From contig NZ_ML703313.1 in assembly GCF_008520305.1 (NCBI RefSeq), positions 1 to 44,604 on the forward strand: a DNA stretch of 44,604 bases, written 5' to 3'. Positions 5,903 through 37,379 of this stretch are shown here, piece after piece. Every line of letters starts with the position of its first letter. The first letter of the stretch is position 1. Under the pieces are notes generated by a model that was given only the letters and a program-made list of their open reading frames with translations, was not told the origin of the DNA and made no database searches. This stretch comes from Mesorhizobium sp. SARCC-RB16n. Its GTDB lineage: Bacteria > Pseudomonadota > Alphaproteobacteria > Rhizobiales > Rhizobiaceae. The position numbers and the translations under genes were made by a program.

Positions 5903-5979
5903 GCTCAGTCTCCCTGTTGACCTTTTTCAGGTTCGGTTTTGATGAGAACCTAGGCTTTGGAGCCCTTGTTCCCCTCGCA

Positions 5980-6019
5980 AGCCCGTTTCACCCCGATCGA
6001 AATCGGGATGAAACAGGCT
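5980..6019 (-). other. Long hairpin directly after the murQ stop codon
   Basis: AGCC-GTTTCA-CCCGAT (5980-5997) pairs with ATCGGG-TGAAAC-GGCT (6002-6019), leaving two single mismatches and a CGAA loop. The hairpin abuts the murQ stop at 6020-6022. No T-run follows on the minus strand, so it is more likely an mRNA-processing or stability element, or part of a repeat unit, than a terminator. It may lower or separate expression of murQ and the transporter genes. Confidence 0.6.
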
Positions 6020-6970: not shown

Positions 6971-6992
6971 CCCATTTCCTCCAACTCCGAAA

Positions 6993-7020
6993 ACAATACC
7001 AAAAAAATACCACTTGTCCA
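6993..7020 (-). promoter_or_regulatory. Predicted murQ operon promoter with internal 18-bp element
   Basis: On the minus strand TGGACA (7015-7020) and TATTGT (6993-6998) are 16 nt apart and would start transcription about 16 nt before the murQ ATG. The 18-bp element TGGTATTTTTTTGGTATT (6995-7012) fills the spacer and overlaps the -10 box. A protein bound there would block RNA polymerase, and the GntR regulator encoded at 8045-8827 is the obvious candidate. The promoter match is moderate. The element itself is supported by its partner at 7130-7147. Confidence 0.55.
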
Positions 7021-7121
7021 CAGTCATTAACGAATTCGTCGACTGGAAATCGGTGCGCCGGCAAAATGATCAGCTTTTTCAATAAAATACACCTTAATCT
7101 TTTTGAAAGACAAATTAAGAC

Positions 7122-7149
7122 TTGGCTATTGGTACTTTATTGGTATTAT
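7122..7149 (+). promoter_or_regulatory. Predicted promoter of the kinase-nagA operon with internal 18-bp element
   Basis: TTGGCT (7122-7127) and TATTAT (7144-7149) are 16 nt apart, the same geometry as the divergent murQ promoter. The element TGGTACTTTATTGGTATT (7130-7147) lies in the spacer and agrees with the murQ-side element at 16 of 18 positions. Both contain TGGTA twice, 11 nt apart, so the half-sites face the same side of the helix as a direct repeat. Transcription would start near 7156, giving a very short leader with GGAGG at its 5' end. Confidence 0.55.
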
Positions 7150-7169
7150 CGGCTTGGAGGAGAAATCGC

Positions 7170-8048
7170 GTGAAATTCGTGCTCGGTATCGATGGTGGCG
7201 GCACCAGTTGCAGGGCCGCCCTGGCAACAGCGGGCGGCGTTGTCGTCGGCCGCGCCAAAAGCGGCGCCGCCAACATACGCACCGACCTCACCGGCGCCCG
7301 CTCGAACATCGTCGATGCGGCGCGGCAGGCTTTCATCGCCGCCGGTAAGGATCCGGACCTGATCCCGCAAACACCCGCCATTCTCGGCCTTGCCGGAGCC
7401 AATGTCGGAACCTACCGGCAGCAGCTCGAAGCGATCCTGCCGTTCAGCACCAGCCGCGTCGAGACCGATGCCGAGATCGCTCTCGAAGGCGCGGTCGGTT
7501 CCGGTGACGGCGCGATGGCGATCCTGGGCACCGGCACTGCCTATATGGCGCGCAAGAACGGCAAATCGCGCGCCATTGGCGGCTGGGGGTTCCAGGTCGG
7601 CGACCAGGGCAGCGGCGCCCGCATCGGCCGCGACCTGCTTGAACAGACATTGCTCGCCCATGATGGCGTGCGCCAGGCCTCGCCGCTGACCGACAGCATG
7701 ATGGCCGTTTTCCGCAACAATCCCGAGGACGTGGTCGAGTTCACCACCAACGCCAAACCAGGCGATTTCGGCGGCTTCGCGCCGAAAGTGTTCGAGCACG
7801 CGCAAAAAGGCGACATCGTCGCCAACTGGATCCTCGACAAGGCAGTCGCCGATGTCGAGGCATCGCTCGGCGCGCTCGACCTCGCGGCCGGCGCGCCGCT
7901 CTGCCTGCTCGGCGGGCTGGCGCCGCTCTATGCGCCGCGCCTGTCGGCGCGCTACCGCGCCCTGCTGAAGGAACCGCTCGACGACGCACTTGGCGGTGCT
8001 GTTCAGATGGCGGCGCGTCTGTTCGCCAGGACGGAGGCCGCACGATGA
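7170..8048 (+). CDS. BadF/BadG-type amino-sugar kinase (GlcNAc/MurNAc kinase-like)
   Basis: This 292-residue protein of the ASKHA (actin/hexokinase) fold probably phosphorylates an amino sugar at O6 with ATP. It shows the phosphate-1 motif IDGGGT (residues 6-11), a phosphate-2 motif (AILGTGTAY) and the GGWGFQVGDQGSGARIG segment typical of BadF/BadG-type GlcNAc kinases. The start is taken as GTG 7170, since GGAGG lies at 7156-7160 and the protein there begins VKFVLGIDGGGT. The upstream ATG at 7122 would lie within the promoter. It overlaps the regulator gene by ATGA. In the known MurK of Clostridium, a member of this family acts on both MurNAc and GlcNAc, which would suit the murQ and nagA neighbours; substrate here is inference. 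Confidence 0.88.
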   Translation: MKFVLGIDGGGTSCRAALATAGGVVVGRAKSGAANIRTDLTGARSNIVDAARQAFIAAGKDPDLIPQTPAILGLAGANVGTYRQQLEAILPFSTSRVETDAEIALEGAVGSGDGAMAILGTGTAYMARKNGKSRAIGGWGFQVGDQGSGARIGRDLLEQTLLAHDGVRQASPLTDSMMAVFRNNPEDVVEFTTNAKPGDFGGFAPKVFEHAQKGDIVANWILDKAVADVEASLGALDLAAGAPLCLLGGLAPLYAPRLSARYRALLKEPLDDALGGAVQMAARLFARTEAAR

Positions 8049-8827
8049 GCGATGCCGCCGACCAGATCTTCGCCGCGCTCAAACAATCTTCGCAAAGCGG
8101 CGCGCCGCTTTACCTACAGCTGCGCAAAAGCATAGAGGACGCCGTCAATCGCGGCCTGATCGGCCCGGGCGACGCGCTGCCTTCCGAGCGCGACATCGCC
8201 ACCAAGGCCGATATTTCGCGCGTCACCGTGCGCAAGGCGGTGCAGGACCTGGTCAAGGGCGGCATATTGGTGCAGCGGCACGGCTCCGGCACCTTCGTGG
8301 CGCCGCGCATGGAGCGTGTCGAGCAGTCGCTATCCAGGCTGACTTCCTTCACCGAGGACATGGCGCGGCGCGGCATGGCGGTGCGTTCGGCATGGCTCGA
8401 CCGCGGCCTCTATGCGCCGTCGCCCGACGAGATGATGGTGCTTGGCCTGTCGTCGAGCGAGCTGGTGGCGCGCGTGGCGCGCCTGCGCATCGCCAACGAC
8501 ACGCCGCTGGCGATCGAACGCGCCTCGCTGTCGGCCAGCGTGCTGCCCGACCCGGCCGGCATCGGTTCCTCGCTCTACGCGGCACTGGAACTGACCGGCA
8601 ACCGGCCGGTGCGCGCCGTGCAGCGCATCTCCGCCGCCAATCTCGGCGACGGCGATGCGCGCCTGCTCGAAGTGCCGCCGGGCATTGCCGGCCTGCACAT
8701 CGAGCGTATTTCCTATCTGGCGAGCGGCAAGGTGATCGAATTCACCCGCTCCATCTACCGGGGCGACGCTTATGACTTCGTCGCCGAACTCCGGCTGACC
8801 GGGCCGGGAGAGGACAACAGACCATGA
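8045..8827 (+). CDS. GntR-family (HutC/UTRA) transcriptional regulator
   Basis: The 260-residue protein has an N-terminal winged helix-turn-helix (about residues 17-83: LYLQLRKSIEDAV, LPSERDIATKADISRVTVRKAVQDL, GSGTFVAPR). A C-terminal UTRA ligand domain of the HutC type follows (about 90-245: LTSFTEDMARRGM, PLAIERASLSASVLP, FTRSIYRGDAYDFVAEL). This is the subfamily of NagR/DasR, regulators that sense GlcN-6-P or GlcNAc-6-P. It is the second gene of the operon, overlapping the genes on both sides by ATGA, so it is probably autoregulated. The paired 18-bp elements at 6995-7012 and 7130-7147 are its likely operators. Operator assignment is inference. Confidence 0.92.
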   Translation: MSDAADQIFAALKQSSQSGAPLYLQLRKSIEDAVNRGLIGPGDALPSERDIATKADISRVTVRKAVQDLVKGGILVQRHGSGTFVAPRMERVEQSLSRLTSFTEDMARRGMAVRSAWLDRGLYAPSPDEMMVLGLSSSELVARVARLRIANDTPLAIERASLSASVLPDPAGIGSSLYAALELTGNRPVRAVQRISAANLGDGDARLLEVPPGIAGLHIERISYLASGKVIEFTRSIYRGDAYDFVAELRLTGPGEDNRP

Positions 8828-9858
8828 TCCCCAACCCCACTCATATGCAGCGCGAGATCGAGGAGATCCCGCAAGCCGTCGCCCGTCTGCTCGACGGCTC
8901 GGGAACAGTGCTGGCCGAAGCCGGGCGCGGCATCAGGGAGCGCGACCCGCATTTCGTCGTCACCGTGGCACGTGGCTCGTCCGACCATGCCGCCACCTTC
9001 ATGAAATATGCCGTGGAGCTGACCGCAGGCCTTGCCGTTGCCTCGGTCGGCCCCTCGATCGCTTCGATCTATGGCCGCAAGCTCCGGCTTGACGGCTCGG
9101 CCTGCCTGGCGATCTCGCAGTCGGGCAAGAGCCCCGATATCGTCGCCATGGCCGAAACCGCCCGGGCCGGCGGCGCGCTGACCATAGCCGTCACCAACAC
9201 CGCCGATTCGCCGCTGGCGCGCGCCTCCGACTATGCGATAGACATACTGGCCGGGCCGGAACGCAGCGTCGCGGCGACCAAGACCTTCATCAATTCCGCC
9301 GTTGCCGGTCTGGCCTTGATGGCGCATTCGACCGGCGACGAAGCCCTTCTCGCGGCACTTGCCCGGTTGCCCGAGCATTTCGGCAAGGCGATCGCCTGCG
9401 ACTGGATGAGCGTGCTGGCCGAAACGATCGAGAAACAGAAATCGCTGTTCATCCTAGGCCGCGGCCCCTCGGCGGCGATGGCCAACGAGGCGGCGCTGAA
9501 ATTCAAGGAGACCTGCGGCATGCATGCCGAGGCCTATAGCGCGGCCGAAGTCATGCATGGCCCGCTGGCGCTGATCGGCCCCGACTTTCCGGTGCTGGCA
9601 CTGGCCGCGCGTGATGCGTCCGAGCCCTCCGTCGCCGAAGCCGCCGACAGCCTTGCGGCCAAGGGCGCGCCGGTTTTCGTCACCTCGGCACTCGCCAATC
9701 GCGCCACGCGGCTGCCGCATGTCGCCACCGGTCACCCGCTGACCGATCCGCTGACGCTGATCGTCTCCTTCTACATGTTCGTCGAGGCCTTTGCGCGCCA
9801 TCGCGGGCTCGATCCGGACGCACCGCGCAACCTTCGCAAGGTGACGGAGACCGTATGA
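8824..9858 (+). CDS. SIS-domain glucosamine-6-phosphate deaminase/isomerase (GlmS/AgaS-like)
   Basis: The 344-residue protein has two SIS domains and lacks the glutaminase half of GlmS. The first SIS domain carries VARGSSDHAA (about residues 48-57) and SQSGKSPD. The middle region SVAATKTFINSAVAG and the second SIS domain LGRGPSAAMANEAALKFKE follow, with the GlmS-like tail [11 protein letters not shown]. Such stand-alone isomerase halves next to nagA usually act as GlcN-6-P deaminases, replacing NagB and yielding fructose-6-phosphate and ammonia. No classical nagB is in the window, which supports this role. It overlaps its neighbours at both ends by ATGA and so is translationally coupled within the operon. 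Confidence 0.88.
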   Translation: MIPNPTHMQREIEEIPQAVARLLDGSGTVLAEAGRGIRERDPHFVVTVARGSSDHAATFMKYAVELTAGLAVASVGPSIASIYGRKLRLDGSACLAISQSGKSPDIVAMAETARAGGALTIAVTNTADSPLARASDYAIDILAGPERSVAATKTFINSAVAGLALMAHSTGDEALLAALARLPEHFGKAIACDWMSVLAETIEKQKSLFILGRGPSAAMANEAALKFKETCGMHAEAYSAAEVMHGPLALIGPDFPVLALAARDASEPSVAEAADSLAAKGAPVFVTSALANRATRLPHVATGHPLTDPLTLIVSFYMFVEAFARHRGLDPDAPRNLRKVTETV

Positions 9859-11027
9859 GCGACCGTTTTGCCCTGACTGGCGCCCGTATCTTCGACGGCG
9901 ACGACTGGCATGAAGGCGCAGCCCTTGTCGTGCGCGACGGCCTCATCGAGGCCATGCTGCCGCAAGGCGCACTTCCCGCGGATATCCGCGTCGGCGACAC
10001 CGGTGGCGGCATGCTGGTGCCGGGCTTCGTCGACATTCAGGTCAATGGCGGCGGCGGGGTGATGCTCAACGACCATCCCGACGTCGCCTCGATCGAAACC
10101 ATCTGCCGCGCGCATGCGCCGTTCGGCACGACGGCGCTGCTGCCGACGCTGATCACCGACACACCCGCGATCACCGCCGCAGCCATCGCTGCCGGCGAAG
10201 CCGCAGCGCTGCAAAAGGTGCCGGGCTTTCTCGGCCTGCATCTGGAAGGGCCGCATCTGTCGATCGCCCGCAAGGGCGCGCATGATCCGGCGCTGATCCG
10301 GCCGATGACGGACGCCGACCAGGCCATGCTGATCGCGGCGCGCCGGAAGCTGCCGGTGCTGCTCACCACGATCGCGCCGGAATCCGTCGACCCGGCCCGC
10401 GTCACGGCCTTGGCCAAGGCCGGGATCGTCGTCAGCCTCGGCCATTCCGACACGGGTTATATCAAGGCAAAGGCCTTCGCCGAGGCCGGCGCCAGCGTCG
10501 TCACTCACCTGTTCAACGCGATGAGCCAGATCGGCAACCGCGAGCCCGGGCTGGCGGGAGCCGCCATCGACATCGGCAGCTTGTCGGCCGGGCTGATCGC
10601 CGACGGTATCCATGTCGACCCGGCCACCATCGCGATAGCGCTGCGGGCCAAACAGGGGCCGGGCAGGATCGTGCTGGTCACCGACGCGATGGCAACGATC
10701 GGCACCGACATGACCTCGTTCACGCTCAACGGCCGCACCATCTACCGCAGGGATGGCAGCCTGCGGCTTGCCGACGGGACGCTGGCTGGCGCCGACCTCG
10801 ACATGATCTCGGCCATCCGGTTCATGCACCGCACCGTCGGGATCGAGCTGTCCGAAGCCTTGCGCATGGCGTCGCTCTATCCGGCGCAGGCGATCGGCCA
10901 GTCGCACCGGCTCGGCCACTTTGCCAATGGCACGGCGGCGGACATCGTTGCGCTGTCGGACGACCTTGGCATAGGAAGCGTATGGATCGGCGGCGGCAAG
11001 GTGTTCGAGGCTGTCGCTCCACGCTGA
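9855..11027 (+). CDS. nagA: N-acetylglucosamine-6-phosphate deacetylase
   Basis: This cytoplasmic amidohydrolase (390 residues) removes acetate from GlcNAc-6-P to give GlcN-6-P. All family landmarks are present: the metal-binding HLEGPHLS (about residue 128), GHSDTGY (about 196), THLFNAMS (about 217), the substrate-binding ADGIHVDP (about 250) and the catalytic aspartate in LVTDAM (about 275). The length is normal. It overlaps the SIS enzyme gene by ATGA and is followed after 10 nt by an FAD oxidoreductase. In the proposed pathway it takes the product of either the kinase (from GlcNAc) or MurQ (from MurNAc-6-P). Confidence 0.95.
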
Positions 11028-11037
11028 GAGCGAGACC

Positions 11038-12150
11038 ATGCAGACAATCGATTGTGTCGTCGCCGGAGCAGGCGTCGTCGGGCTTGCCGTCGCCAGGGCG
11101 CTTGCCTTGTCGGGCCGAGAGGTGGTGGTGATCGAAAAGGCCGACGCGATCGGCACCGTCACCAGTTCACGCAATTCGGAAGTCATCCATGCCGGGCTCT
11201 ATTATGCGCCTGGCAGCCTGAAGGCCCGGCTCTGCGTCGAAGGCCGCCGGCTTCTCTACGCCTACTGCGCCAAACACAATATCGGCCATCGCCGCGCCGG
11301 CAAGCTGATCGTCGCCAGCGAGTCCGGCCAGGCGGACGCGCTGCGGGCGATCGAGGCCAACGCGAAGCGCTGCGGGGTCGACGACCTCCAGCTTTTGACA
11401 GGTGGCGAGGCCGAGCGCCTGGAACCGGCGCTGACCTGCGCCTCCGCGTTGCTGTCGCCATCGACCGGCATCATAGACAGCCATGCGCTGATGCTGTCGC
11501 TGCGCGGCGACGCCGAGGCCGCCGGCGCGTCCTTCGCTTTCCTCACCTGCGTTGCCGGGGCGACGATCGAAACCGACGGGATCCGGATCGACACGCGCGA
11601 TGCCAATGGCGAGACTTTCGCGTTGGAGGCCGGCGCTTTCGTCAATGCCACGGGCCTCGATGCGCAGGCGGTGGCCAGCCGGATCGATGGTTTCCCAAGG
11701 GGTCTTATCCCTCGGCGGTGGCTGGCGCGCGGCAATTATTTCGCGCTTCCGGGGCGGTCTCCCTTTTCACGGCTGATCTATCCGGTTCCGGTCGAAGGCG
11801 GCCTCGGCGTCCATCTGACGCTCGACCTGGCCGGCAATGCGCGCTTTGGCCCTGACGTCGAATGGATCGACGGCGTGGATTACACGGTCGATCCCGGCCG
11901 AAGCGCTGTCTTCTACGAGGCGATTCGCCGCTATTGGCCCGCACTTGCCGACGACGCCCTGCAGCCGGCCTACGCCGGCATAAGGCCGAAGCTCTCCGGA
12001 CCCGGCCAACCCGCCGCGGACTTCCTGGTGCAGGGGCCGGACGATCATGGCGCGGGCCGGATCGTCAATCTGTTCGGCATCGAAAGCCCCGGCCTCACCG
12101 CGAGCCTGGCGATCGCCGACCATGTCGTCGAACTCTTGTACCCGGCCTGA
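11038..12150 (+). CDS. FAD-dependent oxidoreductase, L-2-hydroxyglutarate oxidase-like
   Basis: This 370-residue protein of the DAO/GlpD fold begins with a dinucleotide-binding motif ([18 protein letters not shown], residues 7-24). It carries [26 protein letters not shown] (about 42-67), which closely resembles the signature region of L-2-hydroxyglutarate dehydrogenases/oxidases (LhgO). A C-terminal [16 protein letters not shown] segment completes the FAD site. It starts 10 nt after nagA and ends 22 nt before the convergent matB, so it belongs to the amino-sugar operon. It could oxidise a 2-hydroxyacid. Since MurQ releases D-lactate, a link is tempting, but LhgO proteins act on the L (S) form, so the substrate is open. 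Confidence 0.85.
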
Positions 12151-12172
12151 GCCGGCGCAGGAGGGTATCTGC

Positions 12173-13699
12173 CTAGCCGGCCTTGGTGGAGGCGTAGAGA
12201 TCCTTGTAGCTGTCGCGCAGCAAGTTCTTCTGCACCTTGCCCATCGTGTTGCGCGGCAGTTCCTCGACGAAGATCACCCGTTTGGGATGCTTGTACTTTG
12301 CCATGCGACCGGTGACGGCGTCGAGGATTTCGGCCGCGGTGATCCGTGACGCGGGCGAGCGCACGACGACAGCGGTGACGCCTTCGCCGAAGTCCGGATG
12401 GGCAAGGCCGATGACGGCGCTTTCCAGGACGCCGTCGAGCGCGTCGATCTCGCTCTCGAGTTCCTTCGGATAGACGTTGTAGCCGCCCGAGATGATCAGA
12501 TCCTTGCCACGGCCGACAATATGGACGTAGCCGTCGGCGTCGATCATGCCGAGATCGCCGGTGATGAAGAAGCCGTCGGCGCGGAATTCCGCCCTGGTCT
12601 TTTCCGGCATGCGCCAGTAGCCGCCGAACACGTTCGGGCCCTTGACCTCGATCATGCCGACCTCGCCTTGATCAAGCGGCTTGCCGCTGTCGGGATCGGC
12701 AATGCGCAGCGACACGCCGGGCAAGGGGAAACCAACCGTTCCGGCGCGCCGCTCGCCCTCATAGGGATTGGAGGTGTTCATGTTGGTCTCGGTCATGCCG
12801 TAGCGCTCGAGGATGGCGTGGCCGGTACGCTCGCGCCATGCCTGGTGCGTCTCGGCCAGCAGCGGCGCGGAACCGGACACGAACAGCCGGATGGTCTTCG
12901 CCGCCTCGCGATCCAGCCCGTGCTGTTGCAGCAGCCTGGTATAGAAGGTCGGCACGCCCATCAGGGCAGTGGCGCGCGGCAGCAGAGAGACGATGCGGCC
13001 CGCGTCGAATTTCTGCTCGAACAGCATCGAGGCGCCGGCCATCAGGACGACGTTGGTGGCGACGAACAGGCCATGCGTGTGGAAGATCGGCAGCGCGTGG
13101 ATCAGCACGTCATCCCTGGTGAAGCGCCATTGCTCGACCAGCACCCGTGCGTTCGAGGCGAGGTTTTCGTGGCTGAGCATGGCGCCTTTCGAACGGCCGG
13201 TCGTTCCCGACGTGTAGAGGATCGCCGCAAGGTCGTCCGCGCCGCGCTCGACATCGTGGAAATCGGCGGATTGACGCGATGCCTGGTGCGCAAGGGATCC
13301 CTGGCCATTGCGGTCGAGCGTGACCACGACGGCACCGGACGGCTCGACCATCCCATGGATATCCGCCGACCGTGCCGGATCGCAGACAATCACCCGAGGT
13401 GCCGCATCGTCGAAGAAATAGCCAAGCTCGGTCAGCGTATAGGCGGTGTTGAGCGGCAGGAAGACGGCGCCGGCGCGCACGCAGGCGAGATAGAGCAAAA
13501 CCATCTCCGGGCTCTTCTCGACCTGCACGGCAACCCGGTCACCGGGCGCGACATCCATTTGCAGCAGCACATGCGCGAGCTGCGCCGACCGCGCCAGCAT
13601 GTCGCCATAGGTGAGCGAGCGTCCATCGTCGGTTTCCATCAACGGGTGCCCAGGCGCCGGCATCCGGGACCGGAATGCGTCGAACAGATGATTGCTCAT
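12173..13699 (-). CDS. matB: Malonyl-CoA synthetase (acyl-CoA synthetase family)
   Basis: This 508-residue adenylate-forming enzyme would make malonyl-CoA from malonate, CoA and ATP in the cytoplasm. The P-loop YTSGTTGRSKG is at residues 162-172, followed by ILERYGMTETNMNTSNPYEGERRAG split around the adenine-binding region, the hinge region GRGKDLIISGGYNVYPKELE, and the C-terminal catalytic lysine K488 (PRNTMGK). The MTETNM and NPYEGERR features agree with rhizobial MatB. The ATG at 13699 has AGGAAG before it; a longer in-frame reading is rejected. The usual partners matA (decarboxylase) and matC (carrier) are absent. A GntR gene lies 189 nt upstream on the same strand. Specificity for malonate is probable, not proven. 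Confidence 0.85.
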   Translation of the reverse strand: MSNHLFDAFRSRMPAPGHPLMETDDGRSLTYGDMLARSAQLAHVLLQMDVAPGDRVAVQVEKSPEMVLLYLACVRAGAVFLPLNTAYTLTELGYFFDDAAPRVIVCDPARSADIHGMVEPSGAVVVTLDRNGQGSLAHQASRQSADFHDVERGADDLAAILYTSGTTGRSKGAMLSHENLASNARVLVEQWRFTRDDVLIHALPIFHTHGLFVATNVVLMAGASMLFEQKFDAGRIVSLLPRATALMGVPTFYTRLLQQHGLDREAAKTIRLFVSGSAPLLAETHQAWRERTGHAILERYGMTETNMNTSNPYEGERRAGTVGFPLPGVSLRIADPDSGKPLDQGEVGMIEVKGPNVFGGYWRMPEKTRAEFRADGFFITGDLGMIDADGYVHIVGRGKDLIISGGYNVYPKELESEIDALDGVLESAVIGLAHPDFGEGVTAVVVRSPASRITAAEILDAVTGRMAKYKHPKRVIFVEELPRNTMGKVQKNLLRDSYKDLYASTKAG

Positions 13700-15014: not shown

Positions 15015-15692
15015 CTAGCCTGCGGCCTTGTCAGCCGCTGTCCTGATCGCTTCGATATTAGCGCGGTAAGCGTCGACGTTGCCGCCCTTGAAGATGGCGG
15101 CACCTGCCACCAGCACATCGGCCCCGGCGGCAGTCACCAAAGGGGCTGTTTCCGGCGAGACGCCGCCGTCGATCTCGATGCGGATCGGCCGGCCGCCGAT
15201 CAACGCCTTGACCCTTCTCACCTTGTCGACCATTGCGGGGATGAAGGCCTGGCCGCCGAAACCCGGATTGACGGTCATGATCAGGATCAGGTCGAGCCGG
15301 TCGAGCACATATTCGACGGCGCTTTCCGGTGTCGCCGGATTGAGCGAGACGCCAGCCCTCTTGCCGAGGTTCCTGATGGTCTGCAGCGAGCGGTCGAGAT
15401 GCGGCCCGGCCTCGGCATGCACCGTCATGCCGTCGCAGCCGGCGTCGGCGAAGGCGGCCAGATAGGGATCGGCGGGCGCAATCATCAGGTGGCAGTCGAA
15501 AAAGGCCTTGGTGCGGCTGCGGATCGCCTTGATGACAGGTGGGCCGAAGGTGATGTTCGGCACGAAATGCCCGTCCATCACGTCGAGATGGATCCAGTCG
15601 GCACCGGCCGCCGCCACCGCCTCGACCTCGTCGCCGAGCTTCGAGAAATCCGATGCCAGCACCGACGGTGCGATCAAGGTTTTTTTGCTCAT
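15015..15692 (-). CDS. rpe: Ribulose-phosphate 3-epimerase
   Basis: This 225-residue TIM-barrel enzyme interconverts ribulose-5-P and xylulose-5-P in the pentose phosphate pathway. The family signatures are present: [10 protein letters not shown] (residues 7-16), [17 protein letters not shown] (about 35-51, with metal-binding His and Asp), DCHLMI (about 65-70), [10 protein letters not shown] (about 138-147) and [13 protein letters not shown] (about 173-185). The length is normal. It stands alone between a terminator upstream (15842-15878) and the 382-nt non-coding stretch downstream, so it is probably its own transcription unit. Confidence 0.97.
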
Positions 15693-15841
15693 CTCGCGGC
15701 CTTTCCGGGCGCCCCTTCATACGATCGCCCCGAACCGACTGCCTAAAGCGCTCCCGGCGACTTGTCGAGGGTGCAAGCGCGGTTCCACAAGGTGGTGTCG
15801 CGGCGCGATCTTGTAGGCGCCGGTTCGGCCTGCCCGAGCCA

Positions 15842-15878
15842 CGAAAAAACCCGCCGGATTGCCCCGGCGGGTTTTTCG
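15842..15878. terminator. Bidirectional-looking intrinsic terminator
   Basis: CGAAAAAACCCGCCGG pairs with CCGGCGGGTTTTTCG around a short ATTGCC loop, with one A bulged. There is an A-run on one side and a T-run on the other, so it can end transcription from either direction. It lies 18 nt after the stop of the 1286-residue repeat-protein gene on the minus strand and 150 nt upstream of rpe. The rest of 15693-15895 holds no gene. Confidence 0.85.
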
Positions 15879-15895
15879 TTTGGCGTCGCAGGTGC

Positions 15896-18800
15896 TTACT
15901 GCTGCTGGAGTTTCAGTATCCGGTTTGGAACCGGGTCCTGTTGCTGGTCGATCGGCTGTCTGCGCCGCGGCAGCAATTGCAGCAGCTGACCCGGGTTGAG
16001 CTCCAGCGACGGCTGCCCGCGGATCGGTCGGCAGTTCGGATACCGCCCGACCGTACCGTCCGGGCAGTGTCGCCTGAAGATCGGCTGGCACTGGCCATTG
16101 ACCATCTGCGAGCCCGGCGCGCATTCGCTCTGTTGCCTCGGCTTGCGGCATGCCCCGTCGATCACCTCGGTCCCACGCGGACAGATGCATTCGCCGCGCT
16201 TGTTGTGGACCTGGCCGCGGATATCGCACTGCTGCACATCAGGCTGCTTGCGCCGGCAGGCATTGCCTTGCACCTCGGTACCCCTCGGGCAAACGCAATT
16301 GCCATCGGAGTCATGGACCTGGCCACGGATGGTGCACTGGTCAGGTTTCGGCCGGACCGGACGGCAGGTGCCGTTGCGCAGCTCGGTGCCTTGCGGGCAG
16401 ACGCAATCGCCATCGGCATTGCGGATCTGGCCATCGATGCGGCACTGCTGAGGTTTTGGCCGGATCTGGCGGCAGGCACCGTCTCGCACCTCGGTCCCTT
16501 GCGGGCAGATGCAGTAGCCATCGGCGTCGTGGATCTGACCACGGATGGTGCACTGCTCAGGCCTCGGCCTGTCGCGGACGCAGGCATTGGCCTTCCTGTC
16601 GAGATGCGTGCCGTCCGGGCAGGTGCAGCCATTGCCGTCCGAGGTCGGGACCGAGCCGGGCATGGTGCAGCCCGGTTTGTCGATCCTGACACAGGCGCCG
16701 TTCTCCAGCCCAGTCCCGCGCGGGCAGACACAGCGTCCGTCCTCGGTGCGGATCTGGCCTTCGAGCAGGACGCAGCGCGGTGGCGGCGGCAGTGGCAATG
16801 GCAGAAGGTTGGTGCCGCCGCCAGTGCACTGGCCGTTGCGGAAGGTGGTGCCTTCCGGGCAGACGCAGCGGCCGGCGTCGTTCATGACGAAGCTCGGCGA
16901 ACACTGGTTCTTCACCTCGTGCGTGATGGTGAAAGGATGGCACGCATAGGCCTTGCCGCGATCGCCCTGCCCGTTGGTCGCATCCTTGGACAGCACGTCG
17001 CCGCCCTGCACCCGTGTGTCGGGAGACAGCACGCCGACGCAGTTCTGGCCGTTGACGTTGCCCTGCAGGTTGGCCAGGCGCCCGTCGTCGGGAATGACCA
17101 CCGTCACATGGTGCGACTGGCTTTCACCGGCGCCGAGCGTCAAGTTGGCGATGCAGGAGGCCGGCAGCGTCGTCGCTTCGGGCGAGCAACCGAAGGGCGG
17201 GTCGATCGAAGTGATCGCAACGCCATCCAGCCGGCCAAGCCCGTCCACGCCGATCGCATCGCCGATGCGGACCGGACCCGAGAAGGGGCTCGTCCCGTCA
17301 TTGGATATGGTGATGTCGAACGAGCAGGGCTGGCCGACGCGGCACTCGCGGTCGCCGGTCTTCTCGACACGAATGGTCGAGGAGCCGCCGCCCTTGGCGC
17401 AGGCCTGGCCGATCGGATAGACGACGTCGTCGCCCTGTGCCGGGCCATAGGAGCCCCGCGCGCAGTTCTCGAACTCGCCATTGGCCGAGACAGTCACGTC
17501 GAAGTGCCTGGAGGTTCCGGGCGTCATGACGGCGCCGGGAATCTGGCACGACAACGCATTGGCCGGAACCGGTCCGCACGCCCATTCCGCGCCATCGGGG
17601 GTGACGGTCTGGATCTGGACCGGCGCTCCGCCCGACACCAGCGTGGCGGCATCGTTGACCCGCACCGGACCGGTGGGGGCAGCCGTACCGACGCTGGTGA
17701 TGGTGATGCGGCAGGAAACAACTGCTGCACCCGCCAGCGAGCCGCTGCAGACCTTGGTGATGCGCAAGGTCGGCTGGCCGCCATTGGGATGGCGGATGCG
17801 TTCCTTGGCGCAGGCCTTGTTGTTGGTGAGGTCGACCTCACCGGGGATGGCCTTCACCTCGGCGCAGTTCTCGACCGTGTCCGACCGATAGCTGGCCGGC
17901 ACGACCGCCTTGACGAAGATCGGCGTCGAGGCGCCCGCGGGCAGCGAGATGGCGGCATTGTCGCAGCGGAACTGGCTGGGGCCGTCCGGGCCGCATGTCC
18001 AGGGCGGGCTCGGCCCGAAGGTCGAGGATGTCGGCGCGCCGCTTGGGTAGTTGTCGATCACCGTCAGCGGCCCGTTATAGGTCGATGTGCCGTTGTTGAT
18101 GATGTCGATGATGAAGGTGCAGACGCCGTCGGCGGTGCAGACTTCGGTGCGGGCACGCTTCTTGAGGATCAGGTCAACCTTCTTCTCGACCGGCGGCTGG
18201 CAATCCTGGTTGCGGTCGCCGCGGCGGCAGATCGGGATCGAGGCACAGCCACGGTCATTGGCCTGGCTGCCGAAAAGCGGCTTGCCGCTGGCGCCGTAAT
18301 TGTAGGTGGCGCAGTTGCGCAGCACGCTGCCTTGCCAGCCTCCGGCCGGCCTGAAGCCGAGCTTGAGGTCGACGGAGGCTCCCGGAGCGAGCGTGGTCAC
18401 CGGATAGGTGCACGTCATCGGGGTGGTTCCCGGCGCGCAGACCCAGGGCGGGTTGGGCCCCGAGCTCAGTGTCGAGCCGGCCGGCAGCGTCACCTCGTCA
18501 AGCACGATCTTGCCGTTGTAGGGCGCTGTGCCGACATTGGTGACCCGGATGGTGAAGTCGCAGCCGCCGGCCATGGTGCAGCGCGGAACGTCGGCGCGTT
18601 TCTCGACCTTGAGATCCGGCTCCTTGTCCCGGGGCGGGCACTTCTGGTCACGCGGGATGACGATGTCGATGGTTTGCGTGCAGCACAGGCCCCAGCCCTC
18701 CTTCGGCCCGGCATAGGTGTTGATGCCGGTGACGATGAGGTGGATGACGTCGCCGGGTGACGCGCCGACGATCTTCCAGTCGAGCACACCCCCGCCCGCC

Positions 18801-19756
18801 GGCACCTTCTGGGTGTCGGGGATGATGGTGATGCCCGGTGAGGTCGTCGAAACCTGCACCCACTTGCCGCCCATCTCGGGGCCGACCGGCATGTGGTAGA
18901 TGAAGGCGCCGCCGCCGGGCACGCAGTCGACCGTGCCGCGTTCGACCTTGAAGCATTCATGGTCGGTGGGAGGTGGCGGAGGTGGGTTGCATTTGGTCAA
19001 ATCGATCCGGATCGAGGTCTTCTCCCCGGTTGCGATGTTGCCGTCGTCCGGCTTGCCCGGATCCTGCGACGGGATGCTGGTGCTCGCGCCGGCTTCGTTG
19101 GTCACCTTGATCAGGCCCTGGTTGTCGACCATCGTCGGCGCAGGAAACGCCGCATGGTCGATCTTGGCCGTGATCTGGAAGGTGATGACGCGTTCGTTCG
19201 CAGCGCCGACGCCATCAAGATCACTGGCTGAAAGCCGGAAATCGGAAACCGTCGCCGTATCGTTCGGATTTGTCGACGTGCTGATCGAAGCGCCCGGCAG
19301 CGGTCCGCCGGACGAATCCGTGCCGTCTCCGGCCACATGCACGCCGACGATCTGCAGGCCGTGCGGAAGCACGTCCTTGAAATCGAGACGCGCCTTGTTC
19401 AGCAAAGCCGCCAGGTTTGGGTTGGCAAAGTTCTGCGGATCGCCGCGCACGCCGAAGCTGAGGAAATATTCGACATAGTCGCAGCTTCGTTGCCCGCCTT
19501 TCTTGGTGAAGAAGGGCACGAGCCGACCCGGCTCGGGATTCACGATGCGTGGGTTGTCGAAATCGAGCCTGGGCTGCGTGACAGCGGTGTAGACTTCAGA
19601 GGCGAAGCCTTGCACCGGAGTTAGGGTGGCGACCGCGATACCGGCCGCCATCAGCCAGCGCGCGCCGCGCCTGGCGAGTGACAGGGGTTTCATGATCGTC
19701 TCCATGACGGTTGACTTGTTGCCGGCCGCGAGCGGGGAGGGTGCGAGATTGTTCAT
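15896..19756 (-). CDS. Large exported protein with DUF11-like repeats and a cysteine-repeat C-terminus
   Basis: This 1286-residue protein has no function I recognise. It has a long Sec-type signal (charged start, core WLMAAGIAVATLTPV, cleavage near residue 52). An N-terminal domain (53-255), a proline linker (257-263) and a cysteine-bearing module (268-373) follow. Four Ig-like repeats resembling DUF11 (about 380-500, 527-650, 662-788, 793-910) come next, with the recurring pattern CxF.I.I.N.GTS.Y.GP. Seven short repeats (952-1203) have C-x(11-13)-C-x-C-x(10-12)-C; four of them recur every 36 residues exactly. The tail is rich in Pro, Arg and Gln. The ATG has GAGGAGGGG before it. It starts 10 nt after the beta-propeller gene with which it shares the 268-373 module. 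The many cysteines imply disulfides outside the cytoplasm. A surface, matrix or adhesion role is only a guess. Confidence 0.85.
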   Translation of the reverse strand: MNNLAPSPLAAGNKSTVMETIMKPLSLARRGARWLMAAGIAVATLTPVQGFASEVYTAVTQPRLDFDNPRIVNPEPGRLVPFFTKKGGQRSCDYVEYFLSFGVRGDPQNFANPNLAALLNKARLDFKDVLPHGLQIVGVHVAGDGTDSSGGPLPGASISTSTNPNDTATVSDFRLSASDLDGVGAANERVITFQITAKIDHAAFPAPTMVDNQGLIKVTNEAGASTSIPSQDPGKPDDGNIATGEKTSIRIDLTKCNPPPPPPTDHECFKVERGTVDCVPGGGAFIYHMPVGPEMGGKWVQVSTTSPGITIIPDTQKVPAGGGVLDWKIVGASPGDVIHLIVTGINTYAGPKEGWGLCCTQTIDIVIPRDQKCPPRDKEPDLKVEKRADVPRCTMAGGCDFTIRVTNVGTAPYNGKIVLDEVTLPAGSTLSSGPNPPWVCAPGTTPMTCTYPVTTLAPGASVDLKLGFRPAGGWQGSVLRNCATYNYGASGKPLFGSQANDRGCASIPICRRGDRNQDCQPPVEKKVDLILKKRARTEVCTADGVCTFIIDIINNGTSTYNGPLTVIDNYPSGAPTSSTFGPSPPWTCGPDGPSQFRCDNAAISLPAGASTPIFVKAVVPASYRSDTVENCAEVKAIPGEVDLTNNKACAKERIRHPNGGQPTLRITKVCSGSLAGAAVVSCRITITSVGTAAPTGPVRVNDAATLVSGGAPVQIQTVTPDGAEWACGPVPANALSCQIPGAVMTPGTSRHFDVTVSANGEFENCARGSYGPAQGDDVVYPIGQACAKGGGSSTIRVEKTGDRECRVGQPCSFDITISNDGTSPFSGPVRIGDAIGVDGLGRLDGVAITSIDPPFGCSPEATTLPASCIANLTLGAGESQSHHVTVVIPDDGRLANLQGNVNGQNCVGVLSPDTRVQGGDVLSKDATNGQGDRGKAYACHPFTITHEVKNQCSPSFVMNDAGRCVCPEGTTFRNGQCTGGGTNLLPLPLPPPPRCVLLEGQIRTEDGRCVCPRGTGLENGACVRIDKPGCTMPGSVPTSDGNGCTCPDGTHLDRKANACVRDRPRPEQCTIRGQIHDADGYCICPQGTEVRDGACRQIRPKPQQCRIDGQIRNADGDCVCPQGTELRNGTCRPVRPKPDQCTIRGQVHDSDGNCVCPRGTEVQGNACRRKQPDVQQCDIRGQVHNKRGECICPRGTEVIDGACRKPRQQSECAPGSQMVNGQCQPIFRRHCPDGTVGRYPNCRPIRGQPSLELNPGQLLQLLPRRRQPIDQQQDPVPNRILKLQQQ
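16121..16552 (-). repeat. Four tandem 108-bp coding repeats
   Basis: Cysteines 1069, 1105, 1141 and 1177 of the 1286-residue protein begin successive units of exactly 36 residues (108 bp). Each unit runs C-x12-C-x-C-x10-C followed by a basic, Pro/Gln-rich linker. The constant DNA length suggests recent duplication or homogenisation by recombination. Three more divergent units lie upstream in the gene, back to about 16903. Confidence 0.85.
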
Positions 19757-19766
19757 CTTCCCCTCC

Positions 19767-21731
19767 TCAACGTTCGCAGCTGACGGCTGGGGTTCGGAGC
19801 GGCAAGGTCATCTTGCAGCAAGGGTAGTAGTCACCCTTGTCCTTGTCGGACTTCCTGTAGAAGCAAAGTCCAACATCCACTCTGTCGCCCGGATAGTGGC
19901 CGGTGATGTCGATCGTGTACGGCTTGCCAGGTACATGCGATATGGGTGATGTCACCCCGACGCCTGGTGTCCTGGACTGGGCCTTGATCGAATCGCCGCC
20001 GAAGCCGGCATGGTCATGGAGATAGAGATCGGCCTCGAGACCTGAGGGCGTGCAGTAATACTGGACGTCCTCGACATCGAGACACGGAGGCAGATTGCCG
20101 GGCGGTGGGAAGTCCGGCGGGTAGAAGGGAGGCTCATAGCCGCCCGGTATTTCCTCATAATAGCCAGCACGGCCCTCGCAGGGATGCCAGACGGCGACGT
20201 CGCCGACATGGCCTTCCACTTCGGGATCCTCGAAATAGCCGTCGAAATCGACAAACCAGGAGCCGAAGGGCGGCACGTTGGCCGGCTTGACCAAGTCCTT
20301 GGGCGTGATCTGCACGCCATGCACGGCAATCGGTCCGCCAGCCGCGAGCTTTTCTGCGAGCTCGGGGTTGTCGCGCAATTTGTCGCCGGTATTGACCAAG
20401 GTCTGGGTGCAGACCGAGGTGTCGAGATTGCCGTCGGCGTCGTAGCCATATTGCAGGTCGAGGCCGCCGGCCGACTGGCGGTTACCCTGCGGGAAGCCGA
20501 CCGCATATTCCTGCGGCGTTTCCACCCAGACCGATTCCGTCGAGGGATCGTCGGGATTTTCTCTGAAGTAGCGGATGACTTCGCCCTTGCCGGAATCGGC
20601 GAAGCGGCTGTAGTCGTAGCGGTTTTCGATCGGGCCGCGCTGGGCGAGATACATGAAGCCGCTGTTGTCGAAGGCGATGTCGGTGACGGCGTAGTCCTTG
20701 TCGGCCTTGACCGTCAGCTCCCAGCGCGGATCGCCGGCAAAGGTGCCGTCGCGAGCTATGGCCACCGACCAGATTTCCGACTTTTCGCCGACCGAATAGT
20801 AAAGCCGGCCGCCATGATAGGAGACGGCCCAGACCCGGCGCTCGTCCTGGGTGTAGCCCCAGGTCTCGGCGTCTTCGGTGTCGAAGGCCGCGCCCCGTAT
20901 GTCCATCACCGCGCCATCGTCGGCGACGGGAGCCAGCCCATGCGCCGGTCGCCCGGCGACGCCGTGATCGAACGTGTCCACCAGTCTGCCGTTGGCGTCG
21001 ATGCGATGGATCAGGCCGGTATCGAGGTCGGAAGCGAAGAACTGGCGATGGACGGGATCGAAGGTGATATTGCCGATGCCGGGACCGCTGTTGGTGTCGA
21101 TGTCGGCGAATTTGGCGACCTGGCCGGTGATGCCGTCGATCTTCCAGATGGTGCCCGGTCCGCCGCCGTTTTCGGTGCCGAACTGGCCCTCCATGAAGGT
21201 GGCGCCCGCGGTGCCGCGGCGCTGCCGCTCCGGCCTGCCGTCCTTGTCGGCGTCCGGCGTGACGATCTCGATGCCATGCAGCGAAGTGGCGGCGGCATAG
21301 AGGTTGGGAACGCCCGACGGCACACCGTCGCGCACGCCGTCATCATAGGTGAGGCCGAACACCTCGCCGATCTGGCCAGCCGTTACTTCGAAAGGCGGCG
21401 GCGTGAAGACGAGCTGGCCAGAGGCCGGACCGCCCAAGTGCGTAACGTCGAACACTCGCAAGGTGGCGCGCGACGTGTCGATGAAGGTCTCGTCGACCGG
21501 ATCCACGCCGGGCGGCAGCCCTTCATCTAAATTGGGGATGACGGTGCCGGGAAAGCCGGTGACCGCCATCGAGCCTGGATAAATGATCTGGGTTTCCTGC
21601 GCCCGGGCGGCGCCTCCAAGCCAAAGGCTGGCGGCAAGCGCCAGGGCCAGCAAGCCGCCGGCCTGCAATGCACCGCGCAAGCGGCCGTCAAAGTCAAAAG
21701 AAGACACGAACGTGCCGCGGACGCGAGACAT
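19767..21731 (-). CDS. Exported beta-propeller-like protein with C-terminal cysteine module
   Basis: The protein has 654 residues. The ATG at 21731 is preferred because it has a GGGGG ribosome-binding site and is directly followed by a signal peptide (core LLALALAASLWLGGA, cleavage after ARA44). Residues about 60-530 contain repeated blade-like motifs (IWKIDGITGQVAKFADIDT, FASDLDTGLIHRIDANGRLV, WAVSYHGGRLYYSV, SEIWSVAIARDG), as in NHL- or SMP-type propellers. A Pro-rich stretch (PPFYPPDFPPPGNLPP) leads to a module at 550-654 with cysteines at 550, 560, 623, 638, 639 and 652. This module matches the one at residues 268-373 of the next protein. The next gene starts 10 nt downstream. Function is unknown; both are likely secreted or periplasmic and may act together. 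Confidence 0.82.
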   Translation of the reverse strand: MSRVRGTFVSSFDFDGRLRGALQAGGLLALALAASLWLGGAARAQETQIIYPGSMAVTGFPGTVIPNLDEGLPPGVDPVDETFIDTSRATLRVFDVTHLGGPASGQLVFTPPPFEVTAGQIGEVFGLTYDDGVRDGVPSGVPNLYAAATSLHGIEIVTPDADKDGRPERQRRGTAGATFMEGQFGTENGGGPGTIWKIDGITGQVAKFADIDTNSGPGIGNITFDPVHRQFFASDLDTGLIHRIDANGRLVDTFDHGVAGRPAHGLAPVADDGAVMDIRGAAFDTEDAETWGYTQDERRVWAVSYHGGRLYYSVGEKSEIWSVAIARDGTFAGDPRWELTVKADKDYAVTDIAFDNSGFMYLAQRGPIENRYDYSRFADSGKGEVIRYFRENPDDPSTESVWVETPQEYAVGFPQGNRQSAGGLDLQYGYDADGNLDTSVCTQTLVNTGDKLRDNPELAEKLAAGGPIAVHGVQITPKDLVKPANVPPFGSWFVDFDGYFEDPEVEGHVGDVAVWHPCEGRAGYYEEIPGGYEPPFYPPDFPPPGNLPPCLDVEDVQYYCTPSGLEADLYLHDHAGFGGDSIKAQSRTPGVGVTSPISHVPGKPYTIDITGHYPGDRVDVGLCFYRKSDKDKGDYYPCCKMTLPLRTPAVSCER

Positions 21732-29126: not shown

Positions 29127-30005
29127 TCAGGCGATCAGCACGCGCGGCTCGAAGCGGCCGTTGACCTTGATGTCGAGCAGGAAGGTCATGCCCGCCTGCG
29201 GATCGAGCTGGCGCTGCTTGTCGTCCTTGCCCTTCCAGGCCGACGTCACCGCCAGCCGGTCGGCGTTCCTGCCGACGAAGGCCGGGCAGGAGGGCTGCGT
29301 CACCGGCATCGCAATTTCGCGCAGCAAGGTGCCGTCGGGCGAATAGGCCTTGACCGCCTTGCCACCCCAGACGGCATTCCACAGCACGCCGTCGCCGTCG
29401 ATGACCGATCCATCGACATAGCCCTTGGACGAGCGGTGATCGACGAACACTTTCGGATCACCGTCGGGCAGGCCGGTCGCCGGGTCACAGGCGACGCGCA
29501 TCAGCAGGCCGGTCGAGGTGTCGGTGTAATAGGCGAGCGCGCCATCCCCGGAGAAACAGATCGAGTTCGAGACGGTGATGTCCGAAAACAGACGACGCAG
29601 TTCGCCCTTGAAGAACCAGTAGATCGAACCGGCACCCTTTGCCTCGCCTTTGCCCATCGTCCCCATCCACAAGGCGCCGCAGGGATGGACACGGGAATCG
29701 TTGGAGCGGGTAAGGGGGTTGTCCGCCTCGACAGGCGTATGCAGCGTCATCTGGCCGGTCGCGACGTCGCGGACGAAGAGGCCGGTCTCCGTGGCGATCA
29801 GCTGGCGCCTGTCGTCGATGATGGCGATGGCGCTGGCCATCTGGCCAAGCTCGTGGATCTTGAGCGCGCCGCCGGCCACGGGCTTTTCCAGCAGTTGGCC
29901 GTTGACGATGTCGAACCAGAACAGCGCGTCGGTGGCGGGATCGTAGCTTGGCCCTTCGCCGAGCTCGCAGACATGGTCGGAAAAAACCGAAACCTCGCTC
30001 ATCAT
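29127..30005 (-). CDS. SMP-30/gluconolactonase family sugar lactonase
   Basis: This 292-residue six-bladed propeller probably opens an aldonolactone (galactono- or arabinonolactone type). It has the family's landmarks: ELGEGPSYDPATDALFWFDI (about residues 13-32, with metal-binding Glu), NDSRVHPCGALWMGTMG (about 100-116), SNSICFSGDGALAYYTDT (about 140-157) and YVDGSVIDGDGVLWNAVWGG (about 190-209, metal-binding Asp). The start overlaps the aldolase stop by ATGA, so it is the last gene of the sugar-acid operon. It would act between the dehydrogenase and the missing dehydratase. Confidence 0.93.
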   Translation of the reverse strand: MMSEVSVFSDHVCELGEGPSYDPATDALFWFDIVNGQLLEKPVAGGALKIHELGQMASAIAIIDDRRQLIATETGLFVRDVATGQMTLHTPVEADNPLTRSNDSRVHPCGALWMGTMGKGEAKGAGSIYWFFKGELRRLFSDITVSNSICFSGDGALAYYTDTSTGLLMRVACDPATGLPDGDPKVFVDHRSSKGYVDGSVIDGDGVLWNAVWGGKAVKAYSPDGTLLREIAMPVTQPSCPAFVGRNADRLAVTSAWKGKDDKQRQLDPQAGMTFLLDIKVNGRFEPRVLIA

Positions 30006-35843: not shown

Positions 35844-35978
35844 CCGATCGCCCTTGGCGGGAATGCCGGGCCTTTCCAGACCAATCGACACTCGTGAAGT
35901 CAGCCTTAAACCTAGCCTTAACGGCTTCAATAAATAGTAAAACCGCCTGAACGCGGCCGGCTTCCGGAGCGCGACCGC

Positions 35979-37001: not shown

Positions 37002-37004
37002 CCG

Positions 37005-37379
37005 ATGCAACGCGTGGTCCGCTTTGTCTTCGCAGGCGGCATCGGCTTCGTCACTGATGCGGCCGCACTCTGGCTGCTGCTCGCCGTCACGCCGCTCGGG
37101 CCCTTCGTCAGCCGCATCCTGTCGATCGGCTTTGCGCTCTGCGTCACCTGGCAGATCAACCGGCATCTGACCTTCTCGCCGTCGAGCAGGGGAATGACTC
37201 GGGAGGGCGCCCGTTATGGCGGCGTCGGCGTCGCCACCAGCATCGTCAACTATGCTGTCTACTCGGCCATCCTGTTCGCGGTGCCGGCAACCTCGCCTCT
37301 CATCGCTCTCGCCATCGCTTCGCTGGTGGCCATGACGCTGTCCTTCCTGGGCTACTCGCGGCTGGTCTTCGACCGTTAA
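37005..37379 (+). CDS. GtrA-like flippase family protein
   Basis: The 124-residue protein has four membrane segments (about 4-26, 34-52, 69-90 and 97-117). The first contains FVFAGGIGFVTDAAALWLLL and the second ends WQINRHLTFS, which is the GtrA hallmark (W.xNR.xTF). Members are thought to flip polyprenyl-linked sugars to the outer face. It is 3 nt after the GT2 gene and probably translated from the same message. Confidence 0.92.
   Translation: MQRVVRFVFAGGIGFVTDAAALWLLLAVTPLGPFVSRILSIGFALCVTWQINRHLTFSPSSRGMTREGARYGGVGVATSIVNYAVYSAILFAVPATSPLIALAIASLVAMTLSFLGYSRLVFDR

What the first reader, a model, noticed from the sequence alone, without database searches (positions are those of the whole stretch)
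15896..21731. Two-gene unit for an exported beta-propeller protein and a giant cysteine-repeat protein
Two adjacent minus-strand genes, 10 nt apart and closed by a strong terminator, encode signal-peptide proteins of 654 and 1286 residues with no function I recognise. The larger joins an N-terminal domain, a cysteine module, four DUF11-like repeats and seven short four-cysteine repeats, an architecture more like an extracellular matrix protein than a usual rhizobial enzyme. With no transporter or enzyme gene in the unit, the pair looks like a self-contained extracellular or envelope system. Architecture and linkage are seen; a structural or adhesive role is inferred.
Basis: partly seen in the sequence, partly recalled or inferred. 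Interest (0 to 1): 0.8.

Follow-up and report, generated by a model that had tools for sequence, protein, structure and literature searches.

The report
Split surface protein with matched modules
Two neighbouring rhizobial genes look like the head and the stalk of one giant exported, probably cross-linked protein; each half carries a copy of the same small module, seen in the genomes examined only when the protein is made in two pieces, which suggests that the modules join the halves.

Summary
The genes are as described: 654 and 1286 residues, 10 nt apart, then a terminator. M1 ends protein 1; M2 sits inside protein 2 (profile-profile E 7.6e-15). Protein 1 is a six-bladed propeller. Protein 2 is a stalk: variable DUF7929, M2, four DUF11/CLIPPER domains, seven four-Cys repeats. 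Published work predicts isopeptide bonds in DUF7929 and shows one in a DUF11 domain; the bond residues are conserved here. Many relatives in the order make propeller and stalk as one chain without M. In 347 order genomes M was found in 28, twice in each; all 28 have the propeller. Of 62 loci chosen for a tree, 34 two-gene loci carry M1 and M2, 28 one-gene loci neither (8 changes of state; 8 of 8 independent pairs). At least four re-fusions lie inside the two-gene clade; one is a clean 1.85-kb deletion. M1 and M2 duplicated once. Best reading: a split, fibre-like protein whose halves re-join through M1-M2 (inferred; no binding evidence, no co-variation signal). A structural or adhesive role stays inferred. 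New variant of a known kind.

The parts
19767..21731 (-). Gene 1: propeller protein, 654 aa (signal-peptide-like residues 1-44)
   Evidence: a match in 130 of 199 relatives
20097..21599 (-). Six-bladed beta-propeller domain (residues about 45-545) with a Pro-rich linker at its end
19776..20093 (-). Module M1 (residues about 547-652), six cysteines, last part of protein 1
   Evidence: 6 Cys in 98 of 98 genus loci and 29 of 29 diverse rows
19757..19768 (-). Junction: end of gene 1 stop, ribosome-binding site, 10-nt gap before the ATG of gene 2
   Evidence: spacing across 98 loci
15896..19756 (-). Gene 2: multidomain stalk protein, 1286 aa (signal-peptide-like N-terminus, residues about 1-52)
18995..19519 (-). 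DUF7929 (residues 80-254): predicted CnaA-like isopeptide domain; bond residues K85, D128, N212; the variable domain of the pair
   Evidence: Pfam 2e-86; K85 and D128 invariant and N212 in at least 90% of 31 rows; family bond residues in PMC12617251 Table 1; mean aa distance 0.246 against 0.090-0.159 for the other seven domains, 93 loci
18638..18961 (-). Module M2 (residues 266-373), five cysteines, homologous to M1; on average the most conserved domain of the pair
   Evidence: AF2 all-beta, pLDDT 75.1, pTM 0.61
18227..18628 (-). DUF11/CLIPPER domain 1 (residues 377-510), candidate bond residues K386/D420/N481
17792..18178 (-). DUF11/CLIPPER domain 2 (residues 527-655), candidate K533/D568/N630
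17387..17776 (-). DUF11/CLIPPER domain 3 (residues 661-790), candidate K668/D702/N764
16922..17377 (-). DUF11/CLIPPER domain 4 (residues 794-945), candidate K799/D833/N905
16148..16903 (-). Seven four-cysteine repeats (EB-like; residues 952-1203)
   Evidence: Cys positions; Pfam EB module only E 0.1, below cut-off; 3.1 copies of a 108-nt unit seen in the DNA
15844..15877 (-). Intrinsic terminator closing the unit

Best explanation
The pair encodes one giant exported, fibre-like protein made as two chains. Chain 1 is the head (six-bladed propeller) with a C-terminal adapter, M1. Chain 2 is the stalk: signal peptide, a variable CnaA-like domain (DUF7929), adapter M2, four DUF11/CLIPPER domains and seven disulfide-rich repeats. 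Both come from one unit, are exported separately, and are joined outside the inner membrane by M1 binding M2, so the head is set on the stalk as it is in the one-chain relatives. SHOWN: the architecture, the homology of M1 and M2, strict linkage, M1/M2 found only in two-gene forms among the loci examined, one-chain relatives, re-fusions without either module. INFERRED: co-transcription, export, that M1 binds M2, isopeptide bond formation in this protein, surface location, and an adhesive or envelope role.
For: (1) M1 and M2 are homologous: hhalign 98.4%, E 7.6e-15; controls M against DUF11 and M against DUF7929 gave 5.7% and 0.2%. (2) An M-module search of 347 order genomes hit 28, two copies in each, on neighbouring frames. 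All 28 are among the 102 of the same 347 with the propeller. (3) A 62-row propeller tree of chosen loci (34 two-gene with M1 and M2, 28 one-gene with neither) needs 8 changes, 8-8 in the 5-95% range of bootstraps; 8 of 8 independent pairs agree, p 0.0078. (4) Re-fusions lie inside the two-gene clade on starred branches: L055/L056, L057, L345, L202. L055/L056 keep the dnaK and rpe neighbours and differ from two-gene kin by one frame-keeping deletion of about 1849 nt that removes M1, the stop, the signal peptide, DUF7929, M2 and most of DUF11-1. (5) M1s and M2s form two clades (29 each, 100/97, 98% of bootstraps): the pair arose once (110 columns, some long branches). (6) The pair is kept where DUF7929 is not found: L276 and L277 (too little room for it), L343, L361 and L362 (another N-terminal region). 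(7) M2 is on average the most conserved domain (0.090; propeller 0.111), and M1 and M2 are under purifying selection.
Against: No direct evidence of binding; no complex could be modelled. Domain distances show no special M1-M2 co-variation in 112 loci (partial correlation 0.11; 0.26 and 0.27 for DUF11-1 and DUF11-4). In the L055/L056 fusion dN/dS is higher than in the two-gene pair L160/L163 (propeller 0.24 against 0.15, DUF11 2-4 0.45 against 0.27), and L345 has a shortened propeller match (370 residues), so some fusions may be decaying. A re-fusing deletion removes everything between its breakpoints, so loss of M is partly mechanical. M2 mostly has an odd number of cysteines and M1 an even one, so a simple 1:1 disulfide lock is not implied. 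No surface anchor was found. L277 and its four one-gene congeners, and the f14/f35 rows, need extra changes of state or gene transfer. The M searches scored only the best 13-17 candidates per genome in most genomes, so further copies could be missed.
Confidence: 0.58

Rival explanations
1. M1 and M2 do not bind each other; each binds the same third thing (cell-wall polymer, outer-membrane protein or polysaccharide) and so holds its own chain at the surface. Two chains need two copies.
For: No other anchor was found in either chain. M is predicted as a small all-beta sandwich resembling many binding domains, at background-level scores. No M1-M2 co-variation signal.
Against: The one-chain relatives examined have no M at all rather than one copy, so they would lack the anchor. 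M1 and M2 are two long-separated clades with different cysteine counts, which fits two complementary partners better than two copies of one anchor.
Confidence: 0.2
2. The modules are passengers of an ancient insertion that split the gene. Re-fusions are simple deletions that take out whatever lies between, so the association is mechanical and M has no joining role.
For: M1 lies just before the stop and M2 after the second N-terminal domain, so a deletion from linker to stalk removes both. The L055/L056 deletion has a 4-bp shared sequence at its ends.
Against: M1 and M2 are under purifying selection (dN/dS 0.14-0.20 in L160/L163 and L163/L059), and M2 is on average the most conserved domain. 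At least four re-fusions all lack both. The pair is kept where DUF7929 is absent or replaced.
Confidence: 0.17
3. The two proteins are separate functional units that share an operon, for example a propeller enzyme (lactonase-like) and a structural protein.
For: The propeller profile weakly matches DFPase-like hydrolase propellers (E 0.0017).
Against: One-chain forms in many families of the order, independent re-fusions and the strict pairing argue for one physical unit. By predicted fold the nearest solved propellers are ligand-binding YWTD ones.
Confidence: 0.05

Closest known systems
DUF11/CLIPPER-stalk fibrillar adhesins (PMC12617251; passages, and discussion)
   Same: Long proteins with tandem DUF11 domains bearing the Lys-Asp-Asn bond residues; DUF7929 is listed there as a predicted isopeptide family (representative A0A090G7K7, residues 81-255, K86/D129/N213; here 80-254, K85/D128/N212).
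   Different: Here the head is a separate chain on the neighbouring gene, with a homologous module on each chain at the break; no recognised adhesive or sorting domain; C-terminal four-Cys repeats.
One-chain propeller-DUF11/Cys-repeat proteins of other families in the order (e.g. L040-L051, L335-L340, L352-L354)
   Same: Homologous propeller followed, in one open frame, by a linker and DUF11 domains and/or Cys repeats.
   Different: No M1, M2, DUF7929 or second gene detected.
YWTD six-bladed propellers (nidogen, LRP6, LDL receptor, megalin)
   Different: 11-14% identity; whether the YWTD repeat itself is present was not examined; shared fold only.
Docking-domain pairs and split proteins in general (recalled, not tested)
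   Same: A protein divided over two chains with dedicated modules at the break.
   Different: The two M modules are homologous to each other, and their profile matches no solved chain at E 5.

Membership tests
DUF7929 (PF25551), predicted CnaA-like isopeptide domain | Profile match over the curated cut-off | tested here: met
   288.6 bits against cut-off 27, full length 1-175
DUF7929 (PF25551), predicted CnaA-like isopeptide domain | Lys, Asp, Asn bond residues | tested here: met
   K85, D128 invariant; N212 in at least 90% of 31 rows; bond formation itself not tested
DUF11/CLIPPER (PF01345) | Profile match over the curated cut-off | tested here: met
   63.3 bits against 24.6 for the protein; the first repeat matches DUF7507 below its cut-off
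DUF11/CLIPPER (PF01345) | Lys-Asp-Asn bond residues in each repeat | tested here: met
   Candidate triads in all four repeats, conserved 0.98 or more in 96-98 loci; K-D spacing 34-35 and D-N 61-72, against 33 and 58 in the solved domain; assigned by me from conserved columns; chemistry not tested
Fibrillar adhesin | Surface anchoring or sorting domain and an adhesive domain | tested here: inconclusive
   No anchor, sorting or adhesive Pfam domain at E 1; function not assayed
YWTD/six-bladed beta-propeller fold | Structural match covering the domain | tested here: met
SMP-30/DFPase enzyme family | Pfam SGL match over cut-off | tested here: not met
   No match for the window protein; 1 of 31 alignment members at E 0.029
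EB module (PF01683) | Profile match over the curated cut-off | tested here: not met
   13.2 bits against 24.3; the four-Cys spacing only resembles it

The most novel reading that the evidence does not exclude
M1-M2 is a natural snap-fastener: a once-duplicated domain pair that evolved to rebuild a giant, isopeptide-crosslinked surface fibre from two separately exported chains, letting the head and the N-terminal tip domain (DUF7929, or a quite different region in L361/L362) be exchanged independently, and that is discarded each time the chains are fused again.
Probability: 0.42. Interest if true: 0.72.

Novelty: new variant of a known kind. Interest (0 to 1): 0.58.

Why it matters
Repeated change between a two-chain and a one-chain form of the same protein, with a module pair that tracks the two-chain state, is a natural experiment on how large surface proteins can be kept together without a continuous backbone. 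It names a testable heterodimer module (two domains of about 105 residues) that could be a useful protein joint, and it turns two orphan genes kept in most genomes of the window's genus (97 of 119 for DUF7929; Mesorhizobium to judge by the named records) into a concrete envelope or surface-fibre hypothesis.

Tried and rejected

Literature: eight searches of the open library. 'DUF11 domain' with Mesorhizobium: 0 papers. 'DUF7929': 1 paper (PMC12617251; passages, and discussion section). Beta-propeller with DUF11 and Rhizobiales: 0. PMC6256036 (passages only) does not mention DUF11. The other listed papers were seen only as search listings. I found nothing in print on this pair within these searches; most subscription papers and all preprints are not held.
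Full report
WHAT IS THERE. Two minus-strand genes lie between dnaK (plus strand, upstream of them; Pfam HSP70) and rpe (minus strand, downstream; Pfam Ribul_P_3_epim). Gene 1 is 19767-21731 (654 aa), gene 2 is 15896-19756 (1286 aa), 10 nt apart with a strong ribosome-binding site before the second ATG, closed by a terminator at about 15844-15877 (-32.1 kcal/mol, z -4.8).

PROTEIN 2. DUF7929 (Pfam 2e-86), module M2, four DUF11 domains, seven four-cysteine repeats. A 2025 survey of isopeptide bonds (PMC12617251; passages read, discussion) lists DUF7929 as a predicted CnaA-like isopeptide family, with bond residues K86, D129, N213 in its representative, domain 81-255. The window's domain is 80-254 with K85, D128, N212; in 31 rows K85 and D128 are invariant and N212 is in at least 90%. 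The same paper renames DUF11 'CLIPPER' and solves a structure with the bond K715-N806, D748 presumed catalytic. Each of the four DUF11 domains here has a candidate K, D, N set conserved at 0.98 or more in 96-98 loci, with K-D spacing 34-35 and D-N spacing 61-72. So five bonds are predicted in protein 2; none is shown.

THE SHARED MODULE. M1 (protein 1, residues about 547-652) and M2 (protein 2, 266-373) align at 22% identity (BLASTP E 0.011). With profiles the homology is clear: hhalign 97.7%, E 2.3e-12 and, with more diverse rows, 98.4%, E 7.6e-15; the same method gives 5.7% for M against DUF11 and 0.2% for M against DUF7929. Invariant in 14 diverse rows: the first Cys, the CC pair and four G/P columns. 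M1 has six cysteines in 98 of 98 genus loci and in 29 of 29 diverse rows; M2 has five in 98 of 98 genus loci and in 26 of 29 diverse rows, with 4, 4 and 3 in L276, L361 and L362 as cut by the profile. Protein 1 has 8 cysteines and protein 2 has 65 (positions); by my count by eye the odd one falls in M2.

LINKAGE. In 119 genus genomes, 97 have DUF7929 and 102 the propeller. The five with propeller only are G017, G021 and G112 (one-gene fusions next to rpe), G086 (a 2532-aa single ORF) and G069 (contig fragment); 17 have neither. In 98 loci (window plus those 97), the chosen start of gene 2 lies +10 nt (59), -4 nt (22) or +11 nt (16) from the stop of gene 1; in one no start was found in the range.

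ONE-CHAIN RELATIVES. Elsewhere in the order the propeller is the N-terminal part of one long open frame. In the loci looked at closely it runs through a linker into DUF11 domains or Cys repeats, with no M and no DUF7929 detected. A search of 347 order genomes with the M profile hit 28, each with two copies on neighbouring frames (at most 13 candidates per genome were scored). The propeller profile hit 102 of the same 347, including all 28 (for G231 the propeller hit is on another contig and the M-bearing contig is cut; in G177 a stop separates propeller and M1). In the 74 propeller genomes without M the best hit lies in an open frame of 804 aa or more in 73, and of 354 aa at a contig edge in one (G222). 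Frame length alone is not proof of one chain: frames are stop to stop, some two-gene loci of the genus reach 1552 aa that way, and a few of the 73 run off their contig (e.g. L038, L341, L342). The first-hand evidence is the loci read. In the family, the propeller was found in 27 of 199 genomes. DUF7929 was found in 1 of 289 class-wide genomes, the window's own near relative. M was found in 4 of 279 class-wide genomes: that relative and three others. G682 and G693 have two copies; G595 has one, 1.5 kb from its contig end. In G682 and G693 (L361, L362) the arrangement is propeller-M1 | a different N-terminal region of roughly 690-720 residues-M2-stalk with Cys repeats; DUF11 matches are weak in L361 (1e-3 to 1e-4) and absent in L362.

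HISTORY. A careful propeller tree of 62 chosen rows (34 two-gene, all with M1 and M2; 28 one-gene, all with neither) needs 8 changes of state, 8-8 in the 5-95% range of bootstraps, and yields 8 independent pairs that all agree (p 0.0078; the M label equals the split label in every row, so this only says that M follows the split state through 8 independent contrasts). Adding L361 leaves 8 changes (quick tree). The M tree puts all 29 M1s in one clade and all 29 M2s in the other (100/97, 98% of bootstraps; few columns, some long branches): the pair arose once and travelled as a pair. Inside the main two-gene clade lie at least four one-gene forms on starred branches: L055/L056, L057, L345 and L202. 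L055/L056 differ from two-gene kin L160 and L163 by one frame-keeping deletion of about 1849 nt with CGAC shared at its ends, joining the end of the propeller linker to the tail of the first DUF11 domain; L057 has other breakpoints. The root is by midpoint, so the order of events outside the main clade (L277, L343, L039/L279) is open: independent splits, re-fusions or gene transfer. L276 and L277 have the M pair with too little sequence before M2 for DUF7929.

SELECTION. DUF7929 is the variable part: mean amino-acid distance 0.246 over 93 genus loci against 0.090 (M2) to 0.159 for the other seven domains, and about threefold the propeller's in the 206 closest pairs (0.129 against 0.040; M2 0.041). 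M1 and M2 are under purifying selection (dN/dS 0.09-0.22 over the four two-gene pairs computed). The L055/L056 fusion is also below 1 but higher than its kin (propeller 0.24 against 0.15; DUF11 2-4 0.45 against 0.27); L057 against L143 gives 0.23 and 0.29.

MECHANISM (inferred). The head (propeller-M1) and the stalk (DUF7929-M2-CLIPPER x4-Cys repeats) are exported separately and joined by M1-M2. For: co-occurrence of both modules with the two-chain state, their homology, their absence from each re-fusion, their presence where DUF7929 is not found. Against: no binding evidence, no M1-M2 co-variation, the mechanical element in deletions, and no visible anchor.

STANDING. DUF7929 and DUF11 are known families, so protein 2 is a new member of CLIPPER-stalk proteins. 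The two-chain form with a matched module pair is a new variant; I found no report of it in the searches listed under Tried and rejected. Interest 0.58: the comparative pattern is strong, the joining role unproven, the biological role unknown.

Noticed in passing
window 18638-20093 and L361/L362: M2 has five cysteines in most rows while M1 always has six; the second and last M2 cysteines look absent together in L361/L362, by eye, suggesting they pair, which would leave one orphan thiol in M2.
   Followed up: partly
window 18995-19519: DUF7929 of the window is closer to that of some other strains (L076, L077, L079: 89-92%) than to that of its nearest relatives (L071-L075: 77-80%), although the propeller is 95-96% identical in all of them; this hints at domain swapping by recombination.
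   Followed up: partly
L033 (G177), L058 (G102), L059 (G091), L060 (G065): Gene 1 or gene 2 is interrupted by a stop or frameshift in these genomes; pseudogene or sequencing error not resolved.
   Followed up: no
L049 (G086), 4671-12266 (-): A 2532-aa single-ORF relative in the same genus with a distant propeller, several DUF11 domains and Cys repeats, on a very long branch.
   Followed up: partly
L343 (G787) and L361 (G682): The propellers of a family member and of a genome outside the order are sisters (SH-aLRT 98), which may mean gene transfer of the two-gene form.
   Followed up: no
L361 (G682) and L363 (G595): Identical propeller-M1 frames in two genomes assigned to different families; one genome is rated 10% contaminated, so one assignment may be wrong.
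   Followed up: no
window 15653-18760 (+): A 1035-aa open frame runs antisense to gene 2; probably a GC-rich shadow frame.
   Followed up: no
window 34047-37166 (-): A 1039-aa frame without Pfam match at 1e-5; only its C-terminal half looks like a membrane protein, the rest reads like a shadow frame.
   Followed up: partly
window 29127-30005 (-): An ordinary SMP-30/gluconolactonase-family gene (Pfam SGL 1.6e-62); no relation to the pair was tested.
   Followed up: no
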